Made by a program: the position numbers and the translations under genes | The notes under the pieces: model-generated | Told to the model about the DNA's origin: nothing | Database searches by the model: none | The model's input: the letters and a program-made list of their open reading frames with translations, nothing else | DNA from: Candidatus Tritonobacter lacicola | GTDB taxonomy: Bacteria > Auribacterota > Tritonobacteria > Tritonobacterales > Tritonobacteraceae | Length of the DNA: 51,620 nt | Direction: 5' to 3' | Assembly: GCA_030765135.1 (NCBI GenBank) | Contig: JAVCDC010000065.1 | Span: forward strand, 1-51,620 | Shown: positions 6,923-49,053 of the stretch, piece after piece | Numbering within the stretch: position 1 is the first letter of the stretch | Layout: the number at the start of each line of letters is the position of its first letter

Positions 6923-8077
6923 TCAATCCCGCCGTATAATCCCCCTTTTCACAAGGTCAGCCCTCACCTCGTCAGGAGAGGTGAAAAACAGACTGCCGGG
7001 ATACTCCGTGTGCCCTGCCCTCCCCTCTTCGACCTCGCGTATATAGATGGCCTCGATGCGATCGGGATGCGAGGAGAGAAGCCGGGAATATATTTTCGGA
7101 TCCTCCTGGCCGTTGTCGGCAAAGAGCAGGAATTTCCTGCCGGGGAAGGCAGCGAAAATATTCTCTATTGCGCTTTCCTTGTACTGAACGATGCGCGCCG
7201 CTACGCCGCTCGTCACATCTTTCGACAGGTCCAGCTTCATGAGATCAAGTGCGCCGGAAGGAAAGTGGTTAAGGGGGAGAAACTTCACGATGCGCGCCGC
7301 TACGCCGCTCATCACATCTTTCGACAGGTCCAGCTTCATGAGATCGAGTGAGCCGGAAGGAAAGTGGTTGAGGGAGAGAAACTTCACGATGCGCGTTGAA
7401 AAGGCATAGGGGGAAGCAGAGACGTAGTGAAAAGGCCTCGGGCCTTTATTCCCGCTCCTCGCTATATCCGCGTACAGCGCGGCCATGCCGGGCACCGGCT
7501 TATCCGTCTCTGCGTCCCCGAAAAGCACCGCTTTAACCACCTTGCCATGATCGTGGACCCCGGTTATTTTGACCGTATCGTCTATGTCCGAGATGACACC
7601 CAGCTCCGCGTCGGGGCTTGGAACATATACCGTCCCCCGAAAAAGTCTGCCGTCCCTGGCAATTAACTCGACTCCGGTTGTTCCCTTCCACCTGCCTTCC
7701 GGGGGAGCCGTGAGAGAGGCGCTGAAGTATCCCCGGCCATCGGTCCTTGCCGCTTTTCCGGCGACGCCCGCCCGAATCGTGACGGGCTTTTCTTTTGCCC
7801 CGTCGGGGAAAAAGCCGGCCAGGGAAGAGATGGGCCGCTTGATCCTGGGGAAGGGAGCCTCCTTCATGAATTCGCCATAGCCCTTCCCTATGGTGTACAT
7901 CCTTCCCTTTATGTGGAGAACGCCGGAGTTTCCATATCCCGGGAGAACGACCATCCCGTACCTCTCGTCATCGATAATATCCTCGACCTCTCCGGTCTCT
8001 ACGCCGGCAAGGGCAGAGAGAGCGAACGCCATTATGAGGAGGCACGCAGGATACGCGACAACATAGAGTTTATTCAT
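6923..8077 (-). CDS. Secreted APP1/DUF2183-type phosphatase-like protein
   Basis: A 384-residue protein with a signal peptide (MNKLYVVAYPACLLIMAFAL, cut near ALAG). The C-terminal half is the DUF2183/App1 catalytic domain of the HAD superfamily: the nucleophile motif is DIDDTVK, preceded by GVIS, followed by HYVSASPYAFS and, near the end, FADNGQEDPKIY, the late acidic motif. Relatives include yeast phosphatidate phosphatase App1; the bacterial substrate is unknown. I start at the ATG at 8077 rather than a TTG at 8110, because the signal peptide begins there. Unusually, a 33-residue segment after YVSASPYAFS is present twice (see the repeat entry), inserting extra sequence between two conserved HAD motifs. 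It may therefore be impaired. It lies upstream of valS. Confidence 0.82.
   Translation of the reverse strand: MNKLYVVAYPACLLIMAFALSALAGVETGEVEDIIDDERYGMVVLPGYGNSGVLHIKGRMYTIGKGYGEFMKEAPFPRIKRPISSLAGFFPDGAKEKPVTIRAGVAGKAARTDGRGYFSASLTAPPEGRWKGTTGVELIARDGRLFRGTVYVPSPDAELGVISDIDDTVKITGVHDHGKVVKAVLFGDAETDKPVPGMAALYADIARSGNKGPRPFHYVSASPYAFSTRIVKFLSLNHFPSGSLDLMKLDLSKDVMSGVAARIVKFLPLNHFPSGALDLMKLDLSKDVTSGVAARIVQYKESAIENIFAAFPGRKFLLFADNGQEDPKIYSRLLSSHPDRIEAIYIREVEEGRAGHTEYPGSLFFTSPDEVRADLVKRGIIRRD
7190..7387 (-). repeat. 99-bp in-frame tandem duplication
   Basis: Bases 7190-7288 and 7289-7387 are copies of one 99-bp unit, followed by the start of a third (GATGCGCG at 7388). I count five substitutions between the copies. 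Each encodes 33 residues beginning ARIVKFL and containing NHFPSG and LDLMKLDLSKDV. The frame is kept. The few differences argue against a simple assembly duplication. Confidence 0.9.
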
Positions 8078-19036: not shown

Positions 19037-19801
19037 CTACCAGCAGTAAAACGGATCTGACCAGTACGGCCTGTAGCTCCTGTTCCAGAAGGCGGCCGCC
19101 GCGGCCTCCCTCATGGCCCTCGCGGTCTCTTCCTGCGCCTCGACCTCCCTCTTCTTGAGATACACATCCATCTGGTATCTCATCATCATCCTGGTCTCGG
19201 TGTCAGCCCTGCGGTACCGGTCCCAGTACTCCTCCCAGAACTCCTGCTCCTGCACCTGCCGGACCGGTATGTCGAGTATCCTGGCTTTTCTCTTCAGCCT
19301 CTCCTTCTCCTCTTTCCTGGCCGCCTTCACCGTCCGCCTCTCCTCCTCCATCTCCTCCTTCTCGGCCTTCTTCCGTGCTTTTTCAGCCTCCTTCTCCGCC
19401 TTTTTCTTTGCCTTCTCCCCCTCCTCGAACGACTTGATCAACTCCTTCAGCCTCTTGGCCTCGTCCTTGTCCATATCTTTAAGGTTCTTATATTCATCCT
19501 TGGCGGAGCTAATGTCCCCCAGGTTCAAATATGCCGCACCAAGCCAGAAGCGAGCAGGAGGGAAATTGGGATTGAGACGGATGGCATCCTTGTAATTCTC
19601 GACCGCCTCCCGGTAGCAACCGCGCTCGTAACAAGCCCCGCCGAGATTGTAGTAAGCCCCGGGATCTCCGTCTCTGACGCGGACGGCCTCCCTGCAGGCA
19701 TCAATGTCGAACTCCCTTTCCTGCGCACGGAGCGGGGAAGCGGCCACGGCAAAGAAGATCAATGTTGCCAGGAGCAAATTAATCAGGCGTTGAACTTTCA
19801 T
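19037..19801 (-). CDS. Exported TPR and coiled-coil protein
   Basis: A 254-residue protein with a signal peptide (MKVQRLINLLLATLIFFAVA, cut near LRAQ). Residues about 30-115 hold two to three tetratricopeptide repeats (GAYYNLGGACYERGCYREAVENYKDAIRLNPN and PPARFWLGAAYLNLGD...). About 120-185 is a dense Lys/Glu coiled coil, and the C-terminal part is Arg/Tyr/Trp-rich (FWEEYWDRYRRADTETRMMM; NRSYRPYWSDPFYCW). TPRs imply protein-protein scaffolding, probably in the periplasm. Its ATG overlaps the TGA of the FHA-GGDEF gene by 4 nt, so the two are translationally coupled and may act together. No partner is identifiable. Confidence 0.85.
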   Translation of the reverse strand: MKVQRLINLLLATLIFFAVAASPLRAQEREFDIDACREAVRVRDGDPGAYYNLGGACYERGCYREAVENYKDAIRLNPNFPPARFWLGAAYLNLGDISSAKDEYKNLKDMDKDEAKRLKELIKSFEEGEKAKKKAEKEAEKARKKAEKEEMEEERRTVKAARKEEKERLKRKARILDIPVRQVQEQEFWEEYWDRYRRADTETRMMMRYQMDVYLKKREVEAQEETARAMREAAAAAFWNRSYRPYWSDPFYCW

Positions 19802-20715
19802 GCTGTCCCTGAGCCGGTTTTTTCGCGCGTAAGGGCGCTTTCGACGCGGTTGCGGCCTTTACTCTTGGCAAGGTAAAGGTATCTGTCAGCAGCCTGGAAC
19901 ATCTCCTTATGATCGCGGAAGTTTACGTTGTTCAACGTGGCAATGCCAATGGAGATGCGCACGGGCAGGAGCTTGCCCCCGAAAGTAAACTCCGTCTTCT
20001 CCACCAATCGCCTGAGGCGCGTGGCGTTGACCAACGCTTCCTCCCCGTCAACGCCCTTCAGGATGATTACGAACTCCTCTCCGCCGTAACGGCAGAAGAT
20101 ATCCTCTCTCCGGATAACACCGAATATCGTCTTTGCCAGGCCGCGCAGAACGTGGTCGCCCGCCTCGTGGCCGTGAGCGTCGTTGATCCGCTTGAAATAG
20201 TCGACATCGATCAGTACCAGGGAAATAGGGCAGCGTTGGCGCTGCGCGTAGCTGAACTCGCCCCGGAAGTGGTCGTCGAAAAATCTCCGGTTGTAGATCC
20301 CGGTCAGGCCGTCCCTGGTCGCGCTCTCGTAAAGCTCCTTCTGGAACTGCTCTTCAATATTATCCTGGTAGCTGAACTTAAGCGTGATGGAGCCGATATG
20401 TAACTTATCGCCTTCCCGAAGAACGTGGGCATCTATGCGCCGGGTGTTACAGTAAGTGCCGTTTGTCGATTGCAGGTCCTCTATCCTGTACTTGCCGGAG
20501 GCGACACGAAGGAGCCGGGCATGCGTCCGGCTGACTCCATTATCCTCCAGGATTATATCGCACTTACCGGCGCGGCCGATAAGCACCTCCGGGCCCGTCA
20601 GGGGGAACATCTGCCCGGCCTGGCCGCCGGAGATAACAATAAGGGTCGCCTTTCGCTCCTGCGCCCCCCCCTGCCGCCCGGCGCGCTTCCTGTGCACTAT
20701 GGTCCTGTCATCCAT
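19798..20715 (-). CDS. FHA-domain diguanylate cyclase
   Basis: A 305-residue cytoplasmic protein. Residues about 22-115 form an FHA phosphothreonine-binding domain (VLIGRAGKCDIILEDNGVSRTHARLL; DLQSTNGTYCN). Residues about 130-295 form a GGDEF domain, with the opening DGLTGIYNRRFFDD, LIDVDYFKRINDAHGHEAGD and the active-site loop RYGGEEF. An RxxD inhibitory-site motif (RRED) lies five residues before the GGEEF, so product inhibition by c-di-GMP is likely. The enzyme would make c-di-GMP from GTP, with the FHA domain sensing a phosphorylated partner. It is coupled to the exported TPR protein by a 4-nt overlap. The ribosome binding site is poor (AAGG too near the ATG). Confidence 0.93.
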   Translation of the reverse strand: MDDRTIVHRKRAGRQGGAQERKATLIVISGGQAGQMFPLTGPEVLIGRAGKCDIILEDNGVSRTHARLLRVASGKYRIEDLQSTNGTYCNTRRIDAHVLREGDKLHIGSITLKFSYQDNIEEQFQKELYESATRDGLTGIYNRRFFDDHFRGEFSYAQRQRCPISLVLIDVDYFKRINDAHGHEAGDHVLRGLAKTIFGVIRREDIFCRYGGEEFVIILKGVDGEEALVNATRLRRLVEKTEFTFGGKLLPVRISIGIATLNNVNFRDHKEMFQAADRYLYLAKSKGRNRVESALTREKTGSGTA

Positions 20716-20751
20716 ACCTTATCACGAAAAAAAGTGTTACCTGGTTCCTTT

Positions 20752-20920
20752 TTCTCCGTTACACGTTACACGTCACACGTTTCACGCCTTTGCATCTTGC
20801 TTCTTTTTTCTTTTTCTCCGTTACACGTCACACGTTTCACGCCTTTGCATCTCGCATCTTTTTTCTTTTTCTCCGTTACACGTTACACGTCACACGTTTC
20901 ACGCCTTTGCATCTCGCTTC
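20752..20920. repeat. Degenerate tandem array 1 (three units)
   Basis: Three units of about 55-65 nt, each made of CTCCGTTACACG, one to three further TTACACG/TCACACG steps, TTTCACGCCTTTGCATC and a CTTCTTTTTTC tract. It fills the gap between the FHA-GGDEF start and the stop of the metallo-beta-lactamase gene. Units differ by number of 7-nt TTACACG steps rather than by unique spacers, so it is not CRISPR. The same unit makes up array 2 at 22234-22640. Confidence 0.85.
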
Positions 20921-20924
20921 TTGC

Positions 20925-22208
20925 TTAGCGAACAATTATTTTATCTTCGTTCTTTTCAAACGTCTTCGGACCGATTCCCTTGACGTTCATGATGTCATTG
21001 GTCTGCTTAAATCTCCCTGCATTCTCGCGATAATCAATAATTGCCTGTGCTTTCTTTGGTCCGATCCCGTTTAACGTCTCGAGCTCTCTCTTGGTGGCCT
21101 TGTTAATGTCAATTTTCAAGTCGCCACCTACGACGACCTGTCCCGTCTCATTGCTCGAGGCCAACTTGTAATCAAAAGGAAGGTTCGGAGGGCGGGGGCT
21201 GACCAGCGTTTTTTTCATATCCCGGACGCTGAGATTAATTCCGTCGCTTTCTATTACAAAAGAACCGAGTTGGTCTGTCCTGAAGACGGTGGCCCCGAAT
21301 GCTTTCATCCTATCCAGAACGATCTTCTTGGGATGGCCGTAACTGTTATTAAGGCCACAGCTTATGCCGGCCAGCCGCGGCCTGACCTGCTTGACGAAAT
21401 CATGCGAACAGGAATGGCGACTCCCATGGTGGCCGCACTTGAGAAAATCACTCTGGATGTCATATTGCCTTTCCAGTATCTCATTCTCTGCTTCTAAGGC
21501 GGCGTCACCGGTGAGCAGGAATGAGTTCTTTCCGTATTCCACTCTCACTACGATGGAACAGTTATTATTGTCCTCGGGCAGCTTACCGCCCGGGTGGAGT
21601 ACCTTCATCTTCACATTCCCGATGGCGAACTCCTGGCCGGCTCGGCAAAGCTTATAAGGTACTTTCTTTTCCTTAATGGATTGTAAAAGATCCTTGTATA
21701 TATGAGTGGTATGACTCTTCCCCGGGTCCATGTATTTGCCAATATCATATTTTCTGACGACAGTTGGAAGGCCGCCTATATGGTCCTCGTCAGGGTGCGT
21801 CGCGATAAGAAGGTCTATCCTCTTGACCTTTTCCTTCTCAAGATACTTCAGAAAGGCTTCTGTTGACTTCTTAGGGCCGCCGTCGATGAGTATGTTCGTT
21901 CCATCAGGACACTTTATCAGTGTACTATCACCCTGGCCTATGTCGATGAAATGGATCTCAAGTTTCAATCCCAGGCCACCGATCTGCTTGAGATCAATAT
22001 TCCTGAGTTCTTCGGGACTTACCCATTTTCCGCGATGCTTAACGTAGCCTTTTTCCTTATACCTCTGCTCCTCGATAATCTGCTGAATACGGGGCGAGAT
22101 CCCCCGTTCCTGGGAATGGAGGGATGAGTTTGCCAGGAGAGATGAGGCGAGGATAATAAATGTCAGCGCAATGGCATTCCGATTAAATCTTAGTATAAAT
22201 CTTCGCAT
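20925..22208 (-). CDS. Secreted metallo-beta-lactamase-fold protein with ComEA-like HhH tail
   Basis: A 427-residue protein with a signal peptide (MRRFILRFNRNAIALTFIIL, then ASSLLANSS). Residues about 85-330 form a ComEC/Rec2-type metallo-beta-lactamase fold: IDIGQGDSTLIKCP, the metal motif ATHPDEDHIGG, LLTGDAA, and KCGHHGSRHSCS. Residues about 360-427 form a ComEA-type double helix-hairpin-helix DNA-binding region (DINKATKRELETLNGIGPKKAQAIIDYRE; IMNVKGIGPKTFEKNED). In competence systems ComEA binds DNA and ComEC moves it across the membrane; here the nuclease-like soluble domain and the DNA-binding tail are one exported protein without a channel. An extracellular nuclease or DNA-uptake accessory is inferred. 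No promoter or partner gene is obvious; the gene is boxed in by two repeat arrays. Confidence 0.88.
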   Translation of the reverse strand: MRRFILRFNRNAIALTFIILASSLLANSSLHSQERGISPRIQQIIEEQRYKEKGYVKHRGKWVSPEELRNIDLKQIGGLGLKLEIHFIDIGQGDSTLIKCPDGTNILIDGGPKKSTEAFLKYLEKEKVKRIDLLIATHPDEDHIGGLPTVVRKYDIGKYMDPGKSHTTHIYKDLLQSIKEKKVPYKLCRAGQEFAIGNVKMKVLHPGGKLPEDNNNCSIVVRVEYGKNSFLLTGDAALEAENEILERQYDIQSDFLKCGHHGSRHSCSHDFVKQVRPRLAGISCGLNNSYGHPKKIVLDRMKAFGATVFRTDQLGSFVIESDGINLSVRDMKKTLVSPRPPNLPFDYKLASSNETGQVVVGGDLKIDINKATKRELETLNGIGPKKAQAIIDYRENAGRFKQTNDIMNVKGIGPKTFEKNEDKIIVR

Positions 22209-22233
22209 AGCTATATTTTCCCCGTTTAACGTT

Positions 22234-22640
22234 GCACGTTACACGCCTTTGCGTCTCATTATTCCCATATTTTCATTCTTCTTGCATCTTCTTGTTTTTT
22301 TCCACGTTACACGTCACACGTTACACGCCTTTGTATCTTGCATCTTGTTTCTTTTTCTCCGTTACACGTTACACGTCACACGTTTCACGCCTTTGCATCT
22401 TGTTTCTTTTTCTCCGTTACACGTTACACGTTTCACGCCTTTGCATCTTGCATCTTTTTTCTTTTTCTCCGTTACACGTTACACGTCACACGTTACACGC
22501 CTTTGTATCTTGTTTCTTGTTTCTTTTTCTCCGTTACACGTTACACGTTACACGTTTCACGCCTTTGCATCTTGCTTCTTTTTTCTTTTTCTCCGTCACA
22601 CGTTTCACGCCTTTGCATCTCGCTTCTTGCTTCTTCTCGT
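22234..22640. repeat. Degenerate tandem array 2 (about seven units)
   Basis: Seven occurrences of CACGCCTTTG define units of about 50-65 nt with internal TTACACG/TCACACG steps and T/C-rich tails (TTTCTTTTTCTCCG). The array starts just upstream of the metallo-beta-lactamase gene and runs to the stop of the ParB-like gene at 22642. The unit is the same as in array 1, so copies flank one gene on both sides. Confidence 0.85.
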
Positions 22641-22641
22641 T

Positions 22642-23439
22642 TCACGTCATTTTAGACAACGCCTTCTTTATCCGATCCACCAGCTCTTCTATCTCATCCC
22701 GGCTGCCGAACTTGAGGAGGACCGTCTCCAGCTTCTTCCCCTGGAGAATATCGACCGTGACGCGCCAATCGTCGCCGAATTCCGACACGATGGCCCGCTC
22801 CACATCGTTCAGCTCCTTCTCCTGATCGGTAAGCTCCTCCTCCGGCCGGGCCAGGTCGACTTCCAGCGCGGTCTGTTTGACCGTCAGGCCGTCTTTGATC
22901 GCCATATCGGCTATCTCCAGCTGCTTCTTCTGATCATCCAGCTTCATCAGGACCTGGGCGTGGCCGAACATGATCTTCCCCTCGTGCAGATATTTCTTTA
23001 TCTTCGGGTGGACTTTCCTGAGCAGTCGCCGGTAATGGCTGACGTATGACTGGCTGCGGTTCAGGCGCCTGGCCACTTCCTCCTCCCGCATGCCGTAACT
23101 TGTCACGAGCTCTTCCAGGCCCAGGGCCCGCTCCCAGGGTGAGAGATCGACCCGGTCCATATTCTCGGCCATTCCCGTCACGAGATCGTTGATGTCACCC
23201 TTCACGTTGAGAACAACGCAGGGGATCTCCTTCCACCCCAACTCGTCCAGTGCCGCGAGGCGCCGCTCCCCGGCGATCAGCTGGTAAGCTTTCCTTCTCT
23301 TCGCCACCGCCAGGGGACATATCAGGCCGTTCACCTCGATCGAGTGGGCCAGGTCCTCTATATCCTCCTCACCGCTCGCAAACCTCAGGCGGTATCCCTC
23401 TACCTTGATCTTGTCCCGCGAAATAAGCTGAAATTGCAT
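22642..23439 (-). CDS. ParB/Spo0J-family protein
   Basis: A 265-residue ParB-like protein. Residues about 1-100 are the ParB nuclease/CTPase fold: SIEVNGLICPLAVAKRRKAYQLIAGERRLAALDELGWKEIPCVV, with GERR and the ENMDR box (AENMDRVDLSPWERA). Residues about 100-170 form the helix-turn-helix (EEVARRLNRSQSYVSHYRRLL). The C-terminal stretch LETVLLKFGSRDEIEELVDR is shared with the small ORF at 27295-27507. No parA is adjacent, so it may be a chromosomal-type regulator or part of a mobile/defence segment rather than a partition pair. AAGGAG precedes the ATG by 8 nt. A perfect 20-bp palindrome 29 nt upstream suggests autoregulation. Confidence 0.88.
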   Translation of the reverse strand: MQFQLISRDKIKVEGYRLRFASGEEDIEDLAHSIEVNGLICPLAVAKRRKAYQLIAGERRLAALDELGWKEIPCVVLNVKGDINDLVTGMAENMDRVDLSPWERALGLEELVTSYGMREEEVARRLNRSQSYVSHYRRLLRKVHPKIKKYLHEGKIMFGHAQVLMKLDDQKKQLEIADMAIKDGLTVKQTALEVDLARPEEELTDQEKELNDVERAIVSEFGDDWRVTVDILQGKKLETVLLKFGSRDEIEELVDRIKKALSKMT

Positions 23440-37427: not shown

Positions 37428-40400
37428 TTATTCCGTACTGATCGCCGTCATACCAACCGCGTCATTCCCTATAGGAATGACCCACAAGTCGCGAGCAAGG
37501 GCAGACGGGTTCCTGGCATAGCAATCCCAGTATATCCAGTCGCCGGGAACAAGGGCGTTGTAGTAGTACAGGTTCACGTCCCCCGCACCCTCCTTCTTAA
37601 GGATCGCCAGGTCCTCCTTGCCGTCGTTGTCGGCGTCTATGGCGGTCAGCCCTATCGCGTCGTTGCCCGCCGGCATCAGCCACATGTCCCGCGCGAGAGC
37701 AGAGGGATTCCGTGCAAAACAGTCCCAGTATATCCAGTCGCCCTCCACCAGGTTGTTGTACACGTAAAGATTCACATCCCCAGCGCCCTCCTTCTTCAGG
37801 ATGGCAAGGCCCCTCCCTGCGCCAACGCCTATGTCCGTCAGGCCGATGGCATCGTTTCCGGCAGGCATCAGCCACATGTCCCTGGCCATGGCGGACGGGT
37901 TCCGACTGAAGCAGTCCCAGTAAAGCCAGTCGCCGGGAACAAGGGCATTGTAGTAGTACAGGTTCACGTCCCCCGCTCCCTCCTTCTTCAGGATAGCAAG
38001 ATCATCCAGCCCGTCGGCGTTCATGTCATCCACTCTAGCGATGCCTATCGCGTCGTTGCCCGTCGGCATTATCCACAGGTCGCGCGCCACGGAGGACGGG
38101 TTCCGCGCATCGCAATCCCAGTAGCTCCAGTCTCCACCTACGATGCTGTTGTATAGGTAGAGGTTCACGTCGCCGGCTCCTTCCTTCTTCATAACGTAGA
38201 GCCTGTCCGGGCTGCCACCCGTTGCTGTCATACCTATCGCGTCGTTACCTGTCGGTATGATCCACATGTCCCTGGCCATGGCGGACGGGTTCCGGCTTAA
38301 GCAGTCCCAGTACAACCAGTCGCCCGGCACCAGGCCGTTGTAATAGTAGAGGTTCACGTCGCCAGCGCCTTCCTTCTTCATGATCGCCAGCTTGTTCTCC
38401 AGATGGGTCGGCCGCCCTGAAAAGACATACAGCATGTTGTTATCTGAACCAACATAGATCCTACCGTCTGAGCCTATTGCTGGGGAAGATTCAACATCTC
38501 CTCCAGTCCCGTATGTCCAGGCGAGCGCGCCGTCGGAGCCGAGTGCGTACACGTTGTTGTCATAAGACCCAATATAAAGCCGCCCGTCGGAGCCGATGGC
38601 GGGGGAGGAGGACACCCGGTCCCCGGTCCCGTAGCTCCAGGCGATCGCGCCATCGGAGCCGAGTGCGTACACGTTGTTGTCACATGATCCCACGCAGAGC
38701 CTCCCGCCGGAGCCCACGGCGGGGGAGGAGGTCACCAAGTACCCGGTCCCGTAGCTCCACGTGAGCGCGCCATCGGAGCCGAGTGCGTACACGTTGTTAT
38801 CCCAGGACCCCACGTAGATTTTCTCCTCGGAGCCCACGGCGGGGGAGGAGGTTACCCAGTCCCCGGTCCCGTAGCTCCAGGCGATCGCGCCGTCGGAGTT
38901 GAGTGCGTACACGTTGTTATCCCAGGAGCCCACGTAGACCCTCCCGCTGGCGCCTATGGCGGGGGAGGAGGTTACCCAGCCCCCGGTCCCGTAGTTCCAC
39001 GCGCGCGTGCCGTCGGAGTTGAGTGCGTACACGTTGTCGTTCCAGGCCCCCGCATAGACCCTCCCGTCCGGTCCTATCGCGGGGGAGGATTGCACGCGGT
39101 ATCCAATGCTGCACGTCCACGCGAGCGTGCCATCGGAGTTGAGGGCGCACACATTGCCGTCATTATCCCCCACATAAATTCGCCCATCAGGCCCCACCGC
39201 AGCGGAAGAGTCCACCAAGGCGCCGGTCCCGTAATCCCACGCGAGCGTGCCATCGGAGTTGAGGGCGCATATAGCGCGGGGGGAGTAAACGTCGTTATCC
39301 GGCACGTAGATCATGCCCCCGTGGCCTATTGCTGGGGAAGAGGACACAGCGTCCCCGGTGATGTAGCTCCACGCAAGTGCCGCCGTCGAGGGTCCGGGGT
39401 ACGAGCTCAACCCCGTGCGCATCGGGTCGTGGCGGAACATTGGCCAGGGAGGCGGCGTTGGCGTGATGGTGGGCGTCCGTGTAATCGTAGGCGTCAAGGT
39501 GATTGTGGGGGTCCGGGTAACCGTAGGTGTGCTTGTAGGCGTGGCCGTCAGGAGCCCTGTTGGCGTCCGGGTCGGCGTTGACGTCCGCGTGGGTGTTGCC
39601 GTAGGCGTCCCTGTGGGGGTCCCCGTCGCCGTAGGCGGCGACTCCTGGAACGCGAAGAGCCTGTCGTACGACCCAACGAAGACTCCCCCCTCACCGCCTA
39701 TGGCGGGAGACGACCACACCCGCTCCCCTACCAGGTAGCTCCACTGGAGGCTGCCCGACGAATCGAGGGCGTATATATTCCCGTCGCCACTGTAGGAGCC
39801 CGCGTACACCCTCCCCGCGGCGTCCAGAGCTGGGGACGAGGGAACGCTGCCGGCGGTCAAGTAGCTCCACGCAAAAGAGCCCGCCGAGGTGAGCGCGTAG
39901 ATATTGTTATCGCCGGAGCCCACGTACACATTGCCGTTGGTGCCCACAGCCGGGGAGGAGTCCACCCAATCACCGGCGGCGTAGGTCCACACAAGAACCC
40001 CCGCCTGCGTGAGGGCGTAGAGGTTGTTGTCCTGTGACCCGACATAGAGACGTCCGCCGGGGCCCAGGGCGGGCGAGGAGCGCACGTTCCCCCCCGTCGC
40101 GTAGCTCCACAGGAGCGAGCCGGATGACGTGAGGGAATAGACGTTGCCGTCCGGGTCACCGATAAAGACGCCTCCTCCGGGCCCAAGGGCGGGGGCAGAG
40201 TACTTATCATACCAGAAGGTAACATAGCTCCACGAGAGGGCGCCGACCGAGGTGAGGGCGTAGAGAGCGCCGCCTGAGGAGCCCGCGTAGACCTCGCCCC
40301 CGTAGCCCACGGTGAGGGCGGTCCGCGAGATGCCCCCTCCCGTCGCGTAGCTCCAGGAGAGGGTCCCGTCCGATTCCAACGAGTAGATATTTTTGTCCCA

Positions 40401-40808
40401 GGAGCCGGCGAGGACCCTCCCATCAGGGCCGACAACCGGCGAAGCGTACACGCCCGCCCCCGTCGCGTAGCTCCAGAAAAGCGAGCCGTACGAGTTCAGG
40501 GCGTACACGTTGTTGTCGCCCGACGAGGCCCCCGCGTAGACCCGTCCCTCGTTATCCACCACGGGCGAGGACTCGACCCCTGCACCCGTTACGTAGCTCC
40601 ACAGGAAGACGCCCAGGGTGGGCCCCTCGTACAGGCTCCTTCCAGTGTGCGATAGGTCGTTTCTGAACATCGGCCATGGGGCATAGGGAGTGGGTGTAGC
40701 TGTGGGTTGGGCCCGGGCAGCCGCGGCAAAGAGCACTACGAGAACCACCGCTGTAGCGACAATGCTTGTACGTCCCATGAGAAATCCACGTCGCCTTCCC
40801 TCGCGCAT
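37428..40808 (-). CDS. Secreted double eight-bladed propeller protein with five-repeat module
   Basis: A 1126-residue exported protein. An Arg-rich start (MREGRRRGFLMGRTS) and a long hydrophobic core ending AARAQ form the signal peptide; GGAGG lies 9 nt before the ATG at 40808. After PTATPTPYA, residues about 40-386 are an eight-bladed PQQ/BamB-like propeller introduced by WPMFRNDLSHTGRS, with blades of 40 residues of the type SSPAVGxxGxVYVGSxDNNxYAL. Residues about 390-453 are a Thr/Pro linker, residues about 455-803 a second eight-bladed propeller introduced by WPMFRHDPMRTGLS, and residues 807-1126 the five-repeat module. Such propellers usually bind ligands or proteins; I see no enzyme domain. 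The N- and C-terminal blocks match those of the giant protein upstream, so the two probably arose by duplication. Confidence 0.88.
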   Translation of the reverse strand: MREGRRRGFLMGRTSIVATAVVLVVLFAAAARAQPTATPTPYAPWPMFRNDLSHTGRSLYEGPTLGVFLWSYVTGAGVESSPVVDNEGRVYAGASSGDNNVYALNSYGSLFWSYATGAGVYASPVVGPDGRVLAGSWDKNIYSLESDGTLSWSYATGGGISRTALTVGYGGEVYAGSSGGALYALTSVGALSWSYVTFWYDKYSAPALGPGGGVFIGDPDGNVYSLTSSGSLLWSYATGGNVRSSPALGPGGRLYVGSQDNNLYALTQAGVLVWTYAAGDWVDSSPAVGTNGNVYVGSGDNNIYALTSAGSFAWSYLTAGSVPSSPALDAAGRVYAGSYSGDGNIYALDSSGSLQWSYLVGERVWSSPAIGGEGGVFVGSYDRLFAFQESPPTATGTPTGTPTATPTRTSTPTRTPTGLLTATPTSTPTVTRTPTITLTPTITRTPTITPTPPPWPMFRHDPMRTGLSSYPGPSTAALAWSYITGDAVSSSPAIGHGGMIYVPDNDVYSPRAICALNSDGTLAWDYGTGALVDSSAAVGPDGRIYVGDNDGNVCALNSDGTLAWTCSIGYRVQSSPAIGPDGRVYAGAWNDNVYALNSDGTRAWNYGTGGWVTSSPAIGASGRVYVGSWDNNVYALNSDGAIAWSYGTGDWVTSSPAVGSEEKIYVGSWDNNVYALGSDGALTWSYGTGYLVTSSPAVGSGGRLCVGSCDNNVYALGSDGAIAWSYGTGDRVSSSPAIGSDGRLYIGSYDNNVYALGSDGALAWTYGTGGDVESSPAIGSDGRIYVGSDNNMLYVFSGRPTHLENKLAIMKKEGAGDVNLYYYNGLVPGDWLYWDCLSRNPSAMARDMWIIPTGNDAIGMTATGGSPDRLYVMKKEGAGDVNLYLYNSIVGGDWSYWDCDARNPSSVARDLWIMPTGNDAIGIARVDDMNADGLDDLAILKKEGAGDVNLYYYNALVPGDWLYWDCFSRNPSAMARDMWLMPAGNDAIGLTDIGVGAGRGLAILKKEGAGDVNLYVYNNLVEGDWIYWDCFARNPSALARDMWLMPAGNDAIGLTAIDADNDGKEDLAILKKEGAGDVNLYYYNALVPGDWIYWDCYARNPSALARDLWVIPIGNDAVGMTAISTE
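37431..38390 (-). repeat. Five-repeat C-terminal module, copy B (320 aa)
   Basis: Five repeats of 63, 67, 64, 66 and 60 residues, starting LAIMKKEGAGDVNLYYYN. Repeat 1 ends GGSPDR, repeat 2 DDMNADGLDD, repeat 3 DIGVGAGRG, repeat 4 DADNDGKED, and repeat 5 the C-terminus. These inter-repeat signatures are in the same order as in copies A and C. Confidence 0.93.
38400..40690 (-). repeat. Two PQQ-like propeller arrays of about 120 bp blades
   Basis: Sixteen blades of about 40 codons. Between roughly 38500 and 39260 the blade units are very similar even at the DNA level (GTCCCGTAGCTCCAGGCGA and GAGTGCGTACACGTTGTTGT recur each about 120 nt), and the same words occur in the third propeller of the next gene at 42040-42640. 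Confidence 0.9.
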
Positions 40809-40998
40809 AAATCGCACCCTCCACCCGCGGTCCGCTTTTACCATGAAATCTCGATTCCCCGGGCCGTCACGTCACGTAGCAGTCACCCCGGCGCAAAGCA
40901 CCACGGCCCGACAGAAAACATGGCCCCGCGCTCTTGGCCGCACCCGTTTAGGGGATTTCGCCCCGCTGCCGCTAGGTATCTGCCCTTACAGGGCCCCC

Positions 40999-43900
40999 TT
41001 ATCTTTTCCACCATACCCTGATTGCGGTTATCCCCACCGCGTCGTTCCCCGTGGGGATTATCCAGAGGTCCTGTGCAAGCGTCGACGGGTTGCGCGCCAG
41101 AGCATCCCAGTAGCCCCAGTCGCCGGTCAACAGCGCGTTGTAGTAGTACAGGTTCACGTCCCCTGCGCCTTCCTTCTTCAAGACCGAGAGGTCATCCACC
41201 CCGTCCCCGTCCATATCGATGGCCGTGATACCTATGGCATCGTTCCCTGACGGTATTATCCATAGATCTTTTGCCAGAGGGGACGGGTTCCTCGATACGG
41301 CGTCCCAGTACGACCAGTCTCCTTCTACAAGGTTCCTGTAGACGTATAGGTTCACGTCCCCCTCCCCTTCTTTCTTCAGGATCGCGAGGCCCCTCTCTCC
41401 GTCTCCCTTCCCTATGTCCGTCAGGCCCACCGCGTCGTTCCCCGTTGGGATCAACCACAGGTCGCGAGCCAGGGGTGTCGGGTTCCTCGATACGGCGTCC
41501 CAGTAGCCCCAGTCGCCGGTCAACAGCGCGTTGTAGTAGTACAGGTTCACGTCCCCTCTCCCCTCCTTCTTCAGGATGGCGAGGTCCTTCAGCCCGTCGG
41601 CGTTCATGTCCTCCACGCTGGCGATGCCTATCGCGTCGTTACCCGCCGGCATTATCCAGAGGTCGCGAGCCACGGCGGACGGGTTCCTCGCCAGGGCGTC
41701 CCAGTACGACCAGTCGCTGTCCTCAAGGCCTTCGTAGAGGTACAGGTTCACGTCGCCCGCCCCCTCCTTCTTCATCACGTAGAGCCTGTCCGGGCTGCCA
41801 CCCGGCACAGACGCCATCCCCACGGCGTCGTTCCCCGTCGGGATAATCCACAGGTCACGCGCCATAGGCGAGGGGTTTCTCGCCAGCGCGTTCCAGTAGG
41901 TCCGGTCACCCGCGACGAGGTCGTTGTAGAAGTAGAGGTTGACGTCGCCTCTCCCATCCTTTTTCAGGATGGCGAGCTTCCACGCTACCCCGTCGAGACA
42001 GTACAGCATGTGGTCCTCGGAACCGACGTAGATCCTCCCGTCAGAGCCTATGGCGGGAGAAGAGGACACGCTGCCTCCGGTCCCGTAGCTCCACGCGAGC
42101 GCGCCGTCGGAGTCGAGTGCGTACACGTTGTTGTCCCAAGACCCCACGTAGACCCTCCCCCCGGCGCCCACGGCGGGGGAGGAGTCGTACACAATGTCTC
42201 CCGTGCCGTACGTCCAGGAGAGCGCGCCGTCGGAGTTGAGTGCGTACACGTTGTTGTCCCCGGACCCGATGTAGAGCCTCCCGCCGGTGCCCACGGCGGG
42301 GGAAGAGGAGACCCAGGTTCCGGTCTCGTACGTCCAGGCGAGCGCGCCGTCGGCGGCGATGGCGCACACGTTGTTGTCCCACGACCCCACATAGATCCTC
42401 CCGTCGGAACCTATGGCGGGGGAAGAGGTCACACAGGAGCCGGTCCCGTAGCTCCAGGCGAGCGCGCCGTCGGAGTTGAGTGCGTACACGTTGTTGTCCC
42501 AGGAACCGACGTAGACCCTCTTATCAGACCCGATAGCGGGGGAGGAGGAGACAGAGACTCCGGTCATGTACGTCCACGCGAGCGTGCCGTCGGAGTCCAG
42601 AGCGTACACACCGGAGTCCCATGACCCTACATAGAGCCTCCCGTCGGAGCCCACGGCGGGGGAAGAGTCCACCCAGAATCCGGTAACGTAGCTCCACGCG
42701 AGCGTGCCGGCGGAGTCTATGGCGTACACGTTGTCGTCCCAGGACCCCATGTAGACCATCCCGTCGGCGCCTATGGCGGCGGAAGACCATACGAACGATC
42801 CAGAACCGCTTATGTAACTCCACGCCAGCGCGCCGTCGGAGTTCACGGCGCACATCGTGCTGGGGGAATAGGCGTCATTATCCGGCACGTAGACTCTCCC
42901 CCCGGTCCCTATTGCGGGAGAGGAGGAGACGCCGCCGCCCGTGACGTAGCTCCACGCCATCGCCACCGTCGAGGGGCCCCGGTACTCGCTCCGCCCCATA
43001 CGCATCTGGTTATTATGGAACATCGGCCAGGGGGCGTACGGTGTGGCCGTCTGTAAAGGCGTCGGAGTCTCTGTCTGCGTGACCGTGGCAGTCGCCGAAG
43101 GTGTTGGCGTCTGAGGCATCGTCGGTATTTCCGTGGGTGTGCGTGTCGGCGGCGGAGTCGTCACCGTTGGCGTGTGAGTGGGCGTATTGGTCGGCGTCTC
43201 CGTGGGCGTATCGGTTACAGTCGGCGTCGGAGTGGGCCCTGTCGGAGTGTGAGTGGGCGTGGCGGTGATAGAGGGCGTACTGGTAATTACCGGCGTGGAG
43301 ACCCCAATCGCGTACAGCATGTCGTCATTCGACCCCACGTAGAGCCTTCCGTCGGAGCCTATGGCGGGAGAGGAGGACACACTGCCTCCGGTCATATAGG
43401 TCCATAAGAGAGAGCCCGTGGAGTTGAGGGCGTAACCACCGTTGTCTTGAGAGCCCACGTACACATGCCCGCTGGAGTCTATGGCGGGGGAAGACTGAGT
43501 TACATAATTCCCTGTTACATAGCTCCATGAAAGTGAACCCGTGGAGTTGAGCGTGTAAATAGTACTGTCCCAGGACCCGACATGGACTCTCCCTACAGTA
43601 CCTATGGCGGGGGATGAATATATATTGCCTCCGGTCATATAGGTCCACGTGAGGGAGCCGTTGGAGTTGAAAGCGTAAACACCATGGTCTTGAGAGCCCA
43701 CGTATATTTGCCCCTCAGAGCTTATGGCGGGGGAAGAGGATACATAGCCCCCTGTCATGTAGGTCCACGAGAGTGAGCCCGTGGAGTTGAGGGCGTACAC
43801 GTTGTAGTCAAGCGACCCGACATAGACTTTGCCCCCGGGGCCCAGGGCTGGAGAGGAATCTATGCTGTCTCCGGTCGTGTAGAACCACCTGATAGTGCCG

Positions 43901-46900
43901 TCGGAATCGACGGCGTACACGTTGTGGTCAAAGGAACCCACATAGATCACACCGTCAGGGCCTATCGCCGGTGAGGAACGGCCGCCGGTACCAGTGTAGG
44001 ACCACGAGAGGATGCAGGACCACGAGAGGGAGCCCGTGGAGTTCAGGGCATAGAGATTGTTGTCGAATAATTCTATATAAATTTTCCCATCCGGGCCTAT
44101 CGCGGGGGAGGAATATACCGTGCCTCCCCCTGCCATGTAGGACCATGAGAGGGAGCCCGTGGAATTGAGGGCGTAGACCCCCCCGATTCCCCAGGAAGAA
44201 CCCAGATAGACCCTTCCATCGGGGCCAACGGCGGGGGAGGAAGTCACATTGTCACCGATCACATAAGTCCAGGCGAGTGTGGCTGTCGCAGGGCCGGCAT
44301 ACTGGCTTTGACCCGTGCGCTGTGCGTCGTGATGGAACATCGGCCAGAAGGCGTACAGCGTGGGAGTGGGGGTGGGCGTCGGGGTGATCGTCGGTGTTGG
44401 CGTGGGCGTCATGGTGGGGACGGAGGAGCTGTTCCGCGGGTTGCACGCGACCTCAGAGAAGTCGTTGGCGTTATCGTCAGTGTCGAGCCCGTCAGTGGTC
44501 CTCTTCCACGCCTTCCCGCTCCCCAGCGTTCCCAGGCGCGTCCCCTCGTAGCGTGAAGAGGTCTCCCAGCCGACCGTGTCCACGACCTCGGCGGAGGCGT
44601 TCAGGAGCTGCGCGAAGCTGTTCGCGCCGTTGTCGGTGATGCCGATGTTCGTATCCACGTCGGGGACGACGCTCCCCGTGGGGTTCGTGTCCGATATCAG
44701 GTAGAAGCCGTACCCGTAGATGACGTCGGAGGAGGTGAAGATGTAGTCCCCCGAGTATACGTTGAGTTCCCAGTTCTCCAGGTTTACAGGTGTGCTCGAG
44801 TTGTTGTAGAGCTCCACGTACTCGCCGAGGCCGCCGCTTCCCGTGCTGAAGGGGCCCACCTGGTTGACGACGACGCCCGGCGTGGGCGTGGGATCCTGGA
44901 AACAGTAGAGCCTACTATCCCACGACCCTACATAGAGACTCCCGTCAGAGCTTAAGGATGGGGAATAGACGTCCTCTCCCGTCAGGTACGTCCAGGAGAG
45001 TGAACCCGTGGAGGTGAGGGCGTAGAGCCTGGCGTTGGAGGACCCCACGTAGATACGCCCTGAAGAGTCCACGAGGGGAGAACTTGATGTCCAGGCGGTC
45101 ACATAGCTCCACGTGAGTGAGCCCGAAGAATTGAGCGCATAGGTTCCGGAGTCCTCGGAAGCCACATAGATGCGCCCGTCTGAGCCTACTGCGGGCGAAG
45201 AGGATACATCCCCGCCCGTTACATAGCTCCACTCGAGCGAGCCCGCGGAGGTCAGGGCGTATATCCTGTTATCCAGAGCGCCCACATAGACCCTCTCTCC
45301 GGGGTCCTCCAGGGTGGGGGAAGACCAGACGCCGCTGAATTGACCCGGCCCGGTGGCGTACGTCCACAAGAAGGAGCCCGTAGAAGTGAACGCGTACAGG
45401 TTGTTGTCCTGGGACCCCACGTAAACCCTCTCCCCATAGCCCAGGGCTGGGGAGGAAGCGACTGGATCGCCCGTCATATAGGTCCATGAGAGGGAGCCAT
45501 CGGAATTGAATGCGTAACACCTGTTATCACTCGACCCCATATATATGGTACCGTCAGACCCTATGGCGGGGGAGGAACCCACGTTGTCCCCCGTCAGGTA
45601 GGTCCACGAGAAGGAGCCGTCAGAATTCACGCAATAGAGATTATCGTCATTCGACCCAACGAAGACCTTGTCCCCGGCGCCGAGGGCGGGGGAAGAAGTG
45701 ACGTAATGCCCTGTGGCGTAACTCCATGCAAGCGATCCCGCAGGCGTAATGCCGTAGATGCGATTGTCCCTGGACCCCACGTAAACGCGCCCGTCGGACC
45801 CTGTGGCGGGGGATGATGTCACGCTGGACCCGGCCACATAGGTCCAGGCGAGCGTCGCCGTCGCGGGCCCTTCGTAAGGGCTCCTCCCCGTGTGCCTCAG
45901 GTCGTGCCTGAACATCGGCCAGGGCGTATCCGCGAGCTCACTTTTTTGTCCCAGCGCGGCCCCTTCCTGTGTCCATGGGTGGGGCGCCGAGAAGGTTCCC
46001 GGCGGTGCGCTTGCGGGTGTCTCGACCGGCGGGGGCGAGGACGTCTTTACGTCAATGGTGAGCTTGACAGCGGTGACGCCCCCAGTGAACAGATCGACGT
46101 CCTGCTCGAAGATACTCACTGTGCCAGTCTTCTCTCCGCCCCCCGGCACCTGCGAGATGAAACCCGCCCAGCCCTCGCCCATCTCTTGCTCTAATAAGTT
46201 TGAATTCCCCGACCCTGGCCAGAGGTCTTCTATCTTCGTGCACTTGTAGTTCCCCCCGGTATCATCAAAGTATGTTGCCAAATCGAGGCCAACAAGGAAT
46301 TTGGCCGGGCCCTTGCACCTGTTCCAGATTGTCACGACGACTGTCTTGCGGTCCTGCGAGACGAAGCTGAAGACCTTGTACTGGTTGGGCATTAAAAGCT
46401 TGATATTGGGAAGCAGTTCGGGTGTACCACACTCCCCGTAGCTAAAGACGAAGAGGCCGAGGTCGGCCTTGAAAGTCCCGTGGTAGAAAGCTTCAGGGGC
46501 ATCGTCGTACACCTTGTAGTAGTCGGAATAATCATCGAAGCTCCGTTTGTTCGGCGGTTCCCATTCCCATTTGGCCCAGAGCTTCCAGCCGAACACGAAG
46601 TTGAGCTGGGGCCACGGGTCCCTTTGTAGGACAATTCCCTGCGTGAGACCCTGGAAGACTCCGGGGAAGAGGTACCGTGCGACCTCTGGGTAATCTGCTC
46701 CTGAGGCAGGGGGGTAACCTGTCAGGTGGTGCTGCCCCCACACGTCGATGTAGGGGATGAGAAAATCAACTATCCCCTCTACCATGAGGATCTTCTTCGG
46801 GCCCCAGTCCGGGTCCCACCCGCCAGGGGGGCGCCACACCTCGTCGTTGAGCCTCTTGAGGTACCCTGCAAGGCCTGGCCCCAATGTTGTCGCGGGCGTG

Positions 46901-48591: not shown

Positions 48592-49053
48592 CGCCATCTC
48601 CTTACACATGAGAATAACCCTTCCAGATGTGTCTTGGCAGGGTGACATTACCTATCTATCCCCGGCACACTGCCGCATCAAAGATAAGCCAGCTACCGAT
48701 TCCCTCTACGAGAGATCTTCGGCTCCCCTGAGCCGCCTGCGTGCGGGCCGGCACACCGGTCTTCGTGTCCCGATTATGCTCCCCTCGGCACAAGTCGTCG
48801 GTGTCTGTGACGTGATTTTGGTGATGGTTCCGCTCATGGGCTCTTCGAATAACACAGCCTTTCGATTACGCTTTGAAGCGTGCGCTTCCAATCCACAAGA
48901 TATACGTCTATACGGATAGATAGATGTATAGCAAGGGATAACTATTTCAATTTGAACGCAGAAGGAAGTATCTGTCAACCCTATAATAAACCCTATATAA
49001 TACTTAGGTAAAATACGGGGTAAGAAGGGCTGAAAGGGGGGTGATTCTACTGC
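48592..49053 (-). promoter_or_regulatory. Leader of the giant gene with a possible sigma-70 promoter at 48950-48978
   Basis: No gene is evident in these 462 nt. On the minus strand TTGACA (48978-48973) is followed after 17 nt by TCAAAT (48955-48950, four of six to consensus). Transcription from there would give a leader of about 350 nt before the ATG at 48591. The surrounding DNA is AT-rich. A short frame at 48706-48978 lacks coding character. Confidence 0.35.

What the first reader, a model, noticed from the sequence alone, without database searches (positions are those of the whole stretch)
20752..22640. The same tandem unit on both sides of one gene
Arrays of three and about seven units flank the metallo-beta-lactamase/HhH gene and reach within a few bases of stop codons. 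Unit number and the number of inner 7-nt steps vary, so the arrays look actively evolving. Recombination between them would delete the gene.
Basis: seen in the sequence. Interest (0 to 1): 0.5.

Follow-up and report, generated by a model that had tools for sequence, protein, structure and literature searches.

The report
Seven-base repeat arrays flanking a gene
Two arrays built from the same 55-62 base repeat, itself made of seven-base steps, lie on either side of one gene; they are a local cluster of a repeat found between genes across this bacterium's genome, probably spread by copying errors rather than kept for a known job.

Summary
Three units (20749-20924) and six units plus a worn piece (22209-22641), in one orientation, fill the gaps on both sides of the metallo-beta-lactamase/HhH gene; chance is excluded (9 matches, 0 in 100 shuffles). 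Unit lengths differ mostly by 7-base steps. Units are as alike across the two arrays as within them (0.879 and 0.851), with up to 53 identical bases shared.

A special link to this gene is not supported. The heptads are a genome-wide intergenic family: 159 matches against 2 for the control, and 64 of 64 arrays that I read fell between genes. Neighbourhoods have their own longer units: 9 of 10 matches of this one lie here, 11 of 11 of another on contig C108.

Best explanation: mostly neutral heptad minisatellites that grow by slippage and are copied between nearby gaps. Gene loss by recombination is possible but unobserved. The same heptad array occurs in 17 other genomes of about eight phylum-level groups, in some inside conserved genes. 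A new variant of a known kind.

The parts
20749..20924 (-). Array A: three units (20749-20810, 20811-20865, 20866-20924) between the FHA-GGDEF gene start and the MBL/HhH stop codon; the GTGTAAC reading is on the - strand
22296..22641 (-). Array B: six units (22296-22351, 22352-22406, 22407-22461, 22462-22523, 22524-22585, 22586-22641) reaching the ParB-like stop codon
22209..22295 (-). diverged copy of the dispersed element, just before the MBL/HhH start codon
   Evidence: hit of the composite query at 22272-22218, E 1.7e-05
20862..20914 (-). 53-base stretch identical to 22348-22400: the longest identical stretch the two arrays share
22348..22400 (-). 53-base stretch identical to 20862-20914
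20925..22208 (-). flanked gene: metallo-beta-lactamase domain plus C-terminal helix-hairpin-helix, 427 aa
   Evidence: Pfam PF00753 and PF12836
22642..23439 (-). upstream neighbour: ParB-like protein, 265 aa
   Evidence: Pfam PF17762 and PF02195
19798..20715 (-). downstream neighbour: FHA-GGDEF protein, 305 aa
   Evidence: Pfam PF00990 and PF00498

Best explanation
The two arrays are local amplifications of a dispersed intergenic repeat family that is built from 7-base steps and for which no protein or RNA product was found. Shown: in the parts of the genome read, the family lies between genes; part of it has a fixed phrase order (an ATGGAAATAATGAACCG-like leader, then ACGTGNR heptads, then GGAGAAAAAGAAACAAGATGC); units change mostly by 7 bases; two neighbourhoods tested have their own longer unit in several gaps. 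Inferred: heptads are gained and lost by slipped-strand mispairing or unequal exchange; a local unit is copied from one gap to a nearby gap by short-range conversion or template switching; purifying selection removes arrays from coding DNA. The arrays are most likely neutral or weakly selfish, with loss of the enclosed gene by recombination as a possible side effect.
For: Genome-wide: 43 matches to the 62-base unit, 34 of them outside the two arrays and mostly to its heptad part; 159 matches to ACGTGTAACGTGTAACG with up to 2 mismatches against 2 for the reversed control. Intergenic by my own simple gene calls: 53 of 53 arrays in 32 gaps and 11 of 11 in a further set. Six-mer recurrence at lag 7 is 56.1 per 10 kb between genes and 2.9 in genes; between genes lags 5, 6 and 8 give 3.5, 13.1 and 13.6. 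Phrase order: leader in 14 of 48 clusters and trailer in 15 of 48 (both in 7), against 0 and 0 on the opposite strand and side; a looser leader word is in 23 of 48 against 4. Local units: 9 of 10 matches of this unit in the two gaps here; 11 of 11 matches of another on contig C108, in four gaps. Units of A and B resemble each other as much as units within an array (between 0.879, within 0.851; closest pairs A1-B5 0.984 and A1-B2 0.982), and the terminal units next to each stop codon share a 39-base stretch.
Against: No strain-level comparison was possible, so copying and turnover are inferred from one assembly. The arrays tend to read away from the nearest gene edge (23 of 27 gaps outside the window, or 22 of 27 with a stricter gene list; 7 of 9 in a later set), which plain neutral slippage does not predict. 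The same heptad in several phyla is also not expected from slippage alone. In small samples of same-class genomes lag 7 is low, but lags 14 and 21 are raised in some, so a lineage-specific origin of the 7-base period is not firmly shown.
Confidence: 0.7

Rival explanations
1. The arrays are regulatory: binding sites or translation-stop buffers in the transcript between co-directional genes, as was proposed for the intergenic TAACTGA heptamers of Beggiatoaceae.
For: All three genes and both arrays read the same way; on the transcript strand the arrays hold stops in all three frames (5, 2, 4 in A; 5, 7, 8 in B) and none on the other strand. TAACTGA repeats likewise give stops in all frames in one sense (PMC4679880) and a translational role was suggested for them.
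Against: Over 22 co-directional gaps the array strand agrees with the genes in 12, opposes them in 9 and is mixed in 1, so there is no transcript-strand rule. RNA folding is ordinary (z -1.25 and -1.32). No promoter-like or terminator-like site was found in the arrays on the gene strand.
Confidence: 0.12
2. The arrays are a gene-loss switch: direct repeats kept so that recombination deletes the MBL/HhH gene in part of the population.
For: Direct arrays with 53 identical bases, 1,486 bp apart, bracketing the whole gene.
Against: Arrays bracket one gene at two other places too, on C108 (1.8 kb gene) and C107 (0.46 kb gene), so the bracket may simply follow from repeat density. The assembled contig shows the gene intact. 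No deletion was observed.
Confidence: 0.05
3. A mobile element or gene inserted into one array and split it in two.
For: The same unit occurs on both sides.
Against: Both arrays end on the same side with the same 39-base stretch, so they look like parallel copies, not two halves. The flanked gene has ordinary MBL and HhH domains. Array B has no match in the phage and plasmid collections at the sensitivity used.
Confidence: 0.05
4. A heptad-specific copying machine (reverse transcriptase or transposase) writes these repeats.
For: Same heptad in 17 genomes of several phyla; nine Y1-transposase-like genes in this genome.
Against: No reverse-transcriptase match (PF00078) in this genome, which is 94% complete; no match in the viral, phage and plasmid collections; nothing found here links the Y1 genes to the arrays.
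Confidence: 0.08

Closest known systems
GGGAATC / GGGGA(C/T)T heptameric repeats of Xanthomonas and Nostoc (PMC4692102; sections 13 and 16 and passages seen)
   Same: 7-base tandem units, many copies, intergenic bias, length variation; most lie close to one gene edge on the strand that reads away from it, whatever the gene's direction, as here
   Different: G-rich quadruplex-forming motif with a preferred four units; here the motif is GTGTAAC-like, not G-rich, and in the window is nested in 55-62 base units
TAACTGA direct repeats of marine Beggiatoaceae, Cyanobacteria and Bacteroidetes (PMC4679880; abstract and sections 7, 15, 24 seen)
   Same: intergenic heptamer direct repeats in some genomes but not close relatives, across distant phyla; stops in all frames in one sense, readable inside ORFs in the other
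   Different: mostly just before start codons in one orientation; different heptamer; no higher-order unit described in the parts seen
Cyanobacterial STRR heptamers
   Same: short tandemly repeated heptamers (recalled; only listed papers that use the term)
   Different: motifs recalled as different; not compared here
Tandem repeats of Borg elements (PMC9879509; passages seen)
   Same: fast-evolving direct repeats between and within genes
   Different: units perfect in the passages seen and found on archaeal extrachromosomal elements; here units are 77-98% alike in a bacterial genome

Membership tests
Intergenic heptamer tandem repeats (general kind) | 7-base head-to-tail unit | tested here: met
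Intergenic heptamer tandem repeats (general kind) | many copies, biased to intergenic DNA | tested here: met
   64 of 64 arrays read were intergenic by my own gene calls; 159 heptad matches against 2 control
Intergenic heptamer tandem repeats (general kind) | patchy among related genomes | tested here: met
   1 weak match in 58 relatives; 5 of 286 genomes in the phylum of G066, two of them known carriers beforehand
Intergenic heptamer tandem repeats (general kind) | copy number differs between strains | not testable with these tools
   relatives offered begin at 'same class'
TAACTGA / GGGAATC repeats | same heptamer sequence | tested here: not met
   unit heptads are GTGTAAC-like and GATGCAA-like, in no rotation or strand TAACTGA or GGGAATC (by inspection)
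Cyanobacterial STRR repeats | same heptamer sequence | not tested
   no STRR sequence was seen in any call
GGGAATC-type repeats | read away from the nearest gene edge regardless of gene direction | tested here: met
   23 of 27 gaps outside the window, 22 of 27 with a stricter gene list; 7 of 9 in a later set; the window's array B does not obey it
CRISPR array | constant repeats with unique spacers | tested here: not met
   the whole 55-62 base unit repeats; no unique spacer
Regulatory RNA or riboswitch | known family or unusually stable fold | tested here: not met
   0 Rfam matches in the window; z -1.25 and -1.32
Telomerase-like or retron-made repeats | reverse transcriptase in the genome | tested here: not met
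   0 PF00078 matches; genome 94% complete
Phase-variation locus | repeat number changes expression of a gene | not testable with these tools
   array B lies between the ParB-like stop and the MBL/HhH start, so it could in principle

The most novel reading that the evidence does not exclude
A sequence-specific process, shared or passed between bacterial phyla, writes GTGTAAC-type heptad arrays into genomes: between genes with a fixed polarity relative to the nearest gene edge, and in some lineages into conserved protein genes in frame. The window's paired arrays would be one local burst of it.
Probability: 0.1. Interest if true: 0.8.

Novelty: new variant of a known kind. Interest (0 to 1): 0.4.

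Why it matters
Over-represented heptad repeats in bacteria have been noted, with polymerase slippage suggested as the cause and no function found for the best-studied ones (PMC4692102). This genome adds three testable regularities: longer units private to a neighbourhood and repeated in nearby gaps, a polarity relative to the nearest gene edge that matches the one reported for Xanthomonas and Nostoc, and the same heptad in distant phyla. If these hold up, one general mechanism for heptad arrays becomes testable.

Tried and rejected
Transcript-strand rule: first seen as 22 arrays with the genes against 1. It disappeared when independent gaps were counted (12 same, 9 opposite, 1 mixed). Rejected.

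Purine loading: purine fraction read inward from gene edges shows no common rule (stop edges 0.54-0.56, start edges 0.45-0.50). Eight other phrases of the family show no clear polarity, on small counts.

RNA or terminator function: no Rfam match, ordinary folding, no terminator-like site on the gene strand in the arrays. One terminator-like match on the other strand overlaps the end of array A (20914-20931); such matches were no more frequent than in shuffles (3 against a mean of 4.7).

Reverse transcriptase as maker: none found. Spread by phage, virus or plasmid: no match to exact heptad patterns in the viral contigs or to array B in phage and plasmid records.

Synteny test of the gene: in G013 and G031, which hold the best MBL relatives (49% identity), the best ParB-like relatives lie on other contigs, so no orthologous gaps could be compared.

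Composite query against other phyla and relatives: 12 weak hits, best E 0.0059, all over the heptad part and in a few cases somewhat beyond it. The longer element itself is not shown to be shared.

In one search the coding value for G004 (about 1,196 at every lag shown) comes from 2,874 masked N in L222, not from repeats.

Literature: some searches ran; three papers were used. The search for peptide and DNA strings found one unrelated paper.

Full report
What is there. The window holds two tandem arrays on either side of a metallo-beta-lactamase/helix-hairpin-helix gene (20925-22208, - strand; PF00753 and PF12836). Array A (20749-20924) has three units; array B (22296-22641) has six, with a diverged piece at 22209-22295. 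Unit lengths are 62, 55, 59 (cut by the gene) in A and 56, 55, 55, 62, 62, 56 in B. Read on the gene strand, a unit is a poly-purine stretch, GATGC/GAAAC heptads, then CGTGNNA heptads. Each unit has 2-4 of the CGTNNCA heptads and 2-3 of the TTGNNTC heptads, so lengths change mostly by 7. A 26-base piece of the unit matches 9 times in the window with up to 3 mismatches, against none in 100 shuffles. A reaches the stop codon of the flanked gene; B reaches the stop codon of a ParB-like gene (22642-23439). Downstream of A is an FHA-GGDEF gene (19798-20715).

How the two arrays relate. Mean unit identity between arrays is 0.879 (18 pairs) and within arrays 0.851 (18 pairs); the closest pairs are across arrays (A1-B5 0.984, A1-B2 0.982). 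The longest identical stretch is 53 bases, at 20862 and 22348. The units that touch each stop codon share a 39-base stretch. This fits copying of an array from one gap to the other better than one array split by an insertion. Recombination across the 53 bases would delete 1,486 bp and the whole gene; this was not observed.

The genome. The window is contig C3 of a draft genome of 3.21 Mb in 148 contigs, 94% complete. The 62-base unit has 43 matches at E 0.001 or better, 9 of them in the two arrays; outside them only one, on C4, is a close full-length match (94%), and most of the rest cover the heptad part. The pattern ACGTGTAACGTGTAACG with up to 2 mismatches has 159 matches against 2 for the reversed control. 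I read 450,620 bases with a simple codon-based gene caller of my own: the window plus 20 stretches of seven contigs, all of which had a hit. In intergenic DNA the 6-mer recurrence per 10 kb is 56.1 at lag 7, 30.8 at 14, 32.5 at 21, 16.8 at 28 and 17.2 at 35; lags 9 and 18 are also raised (33.1, 17.1), and most other lags are 2-14. In genes lag 7 is 2.9 and lag 14 is 3.0, with only the 3-base codon period raised. Without the window, intergenic lag 7 is still 52.9. All 53 arrays of two or more ACGTGNR heptads found in these and 20 further stretches chosen at hits lie between genes, in 32 gaps; so do 11 of 11 in a later set.

Structure of the family. In 48 array clusters a leader of the type ATAATGAA occurs within 70 bases 5' in 14, and a trailer ACGGA(A/G)AAA in 15, both in 7; on the opposite strand and side the counts are 0 and 0. 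So the composite element describes a part of the clusters, not all. A composite query written from own-genome copies finds 27 hits in the fetched stretches, all intergenic, 8 of them in the window; the best is the copy it was largely written from. Two neighbourhoods were tested for a unit of their own. The window's CACGCCTTTGCATCTTG (up to 2 mismatches) has 10 matches, 9 of them in the two gaps here and 1 on C4. CACACGTTTGTTTTTTCACG (up to 3 mismatches) has 11 matches, all on C108, in four gaps; two of these bracket one 1.8 kb gene. On C107 two gaps around a 0.46 kb gene share a 26-base stretch. So a shared unit on both sides of one gene recurs elsewhere.

Polarity. The first set suggested that arrays follow the gene strand (22 to 1). 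Counted by independent gap this vanished (12 same, 9 opposite, 1 mixed). A different rule, noticed after the fact: arrays read away from the nearest gene edge in 24 of the 29 gaps with both edges known, 23 of 27 without the window, 22 of 27 with a stricter gene list. A later set chosen without regard to it gave 7 of 9 (two more gaps lacked an edge), which alone is not significant. One of the window's own gaps, array B, goes against it. The same rule is reported for GGGAATC repeats in Xanthomonas and Nostoc (PMC4692102 section 13).

Relatives and other phyla. Of 58 related genomes searched with the unit, 1 has a weak match. Samples of four same-class genomes show lag-7 values of 0-22 per 10 kb on only 4-16 kb of intergenic DNA each; lags 14 and 21 are raised in some of them (for example 37.1 and 51.9 in G001), so other 7-base repeats there are not excluded. 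A scan of one genome for each of 84,980 species for ACGTGTRACGTGTRACGTGTAACG gave 20 stretches in 17 genomes. By record title these are Bacteroidetes, Nitrospirae, Acidobacteriota, Patescibacteria groups, Desantisbacteria, Elusimicrobia, Gammaproteobacteria and Anaerolineales. By my own arithmetic with equal base frequencies about 0.01 matches are expected. Of 286 genomes of the phylum of G066, 5 have matches with up to 1 mismatch, two of them carriers known beforehand. The longer element of this genome was not found in the other phyla: 12 weak hits over the heptad part, best E 0.0059.

Arrays inside genes elsewhere. In 8 of the 20 stretches I judge the array to lie inside a real gene. In four more (L066, L069, L076, L081) some open frame also crosses it, which I took as spurious without a family search. 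In these genes the coding sense is the stop-free CGTTACA reading, as the heptad's other strand has stops in every frame. Seven of the eight were scanned and all match a Pfam family; in 5 of the 7 the array lies inside the matched domain: triosephosphate isomerase, peptidyl-tRNA hydrolase, 6-pyruvoyl tetrahydropterin synthase and two glycosyltransferases. In the best alignments to solved homologues, three of them tested, it stands opposite native sequence with 0, 3 and 4 extra residues. Assembly error was not excluded.

What it most likely is. A family of intergenic heptad minisatellites, growing by 7-base slippage and copied between nearby gaps. Function tests were negative or ordinary: no Rfam family in the window, folding z -1.25 and -1.32, no promoter or terminator match in the arrays on the gene strand, no reverse transcriptase, no match in the viral, phage and plasmid collections. 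Nine Y1-transposase-like genes exist, but nothing found ties them to the arrays.

Known kind. Heptameric tandem repeats are described as over-represented in many bacterial genomes, with slippage suggested and function open (PMC4692102). TAACTGA repeats of Beggiatoaceae are mostly intergenic, patchy across phyla, and readable in ORFs only in one sense (PMC4679880). The window's arrays share these traits with a different heptad and a nested longer unit, so I file them as a new variant of a known kind.

Noticed in passing
L067, L072, L073, L074, L077, L078, L079, L080: Pure GTGTAAC arrays inside what look like protein genes of other phyla, in frame, encoding VTRYTLHVTRYT-like peptides; three aligned cases stand opposite native sequence of similar length.
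   Followed up: partly
own genome, intergenic sample: A second dispersed intergenic word, TCGCAAATTTAT with GCTACGCTCGC-like words, in up to 14 gaps; looks like a different repeat family.
   Followed up: no
own genome, intergenic sample: Lags 9 and 18 are also raised between genes (33.1 and 17.1 per 10 kb), suggesting 9-base phrases beside the heptads.
   Followed up: no
L248 (C5), L249 and L250 (C36): Near-identical arrays with the same leader at three places (the third cut by the contig end), and the same trailer at L145 and L088, as if recently dispersed.
   Followed up: no
window 37428-40844 and 40999-48648: Two long ORFs with many 120-base and about 190-390-base tandem repeats.
   Followed up: no
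window 7188-7395: A 99-base direct repeat of 2.1 copies, 95% alike, within an ORF.
   Followed up: no
own genome: Nine Y1-transposase-like (PF01797) matches and six places matching the MBL/HhH protein at E 1e-30 or better, its own included.
   Followed up: no
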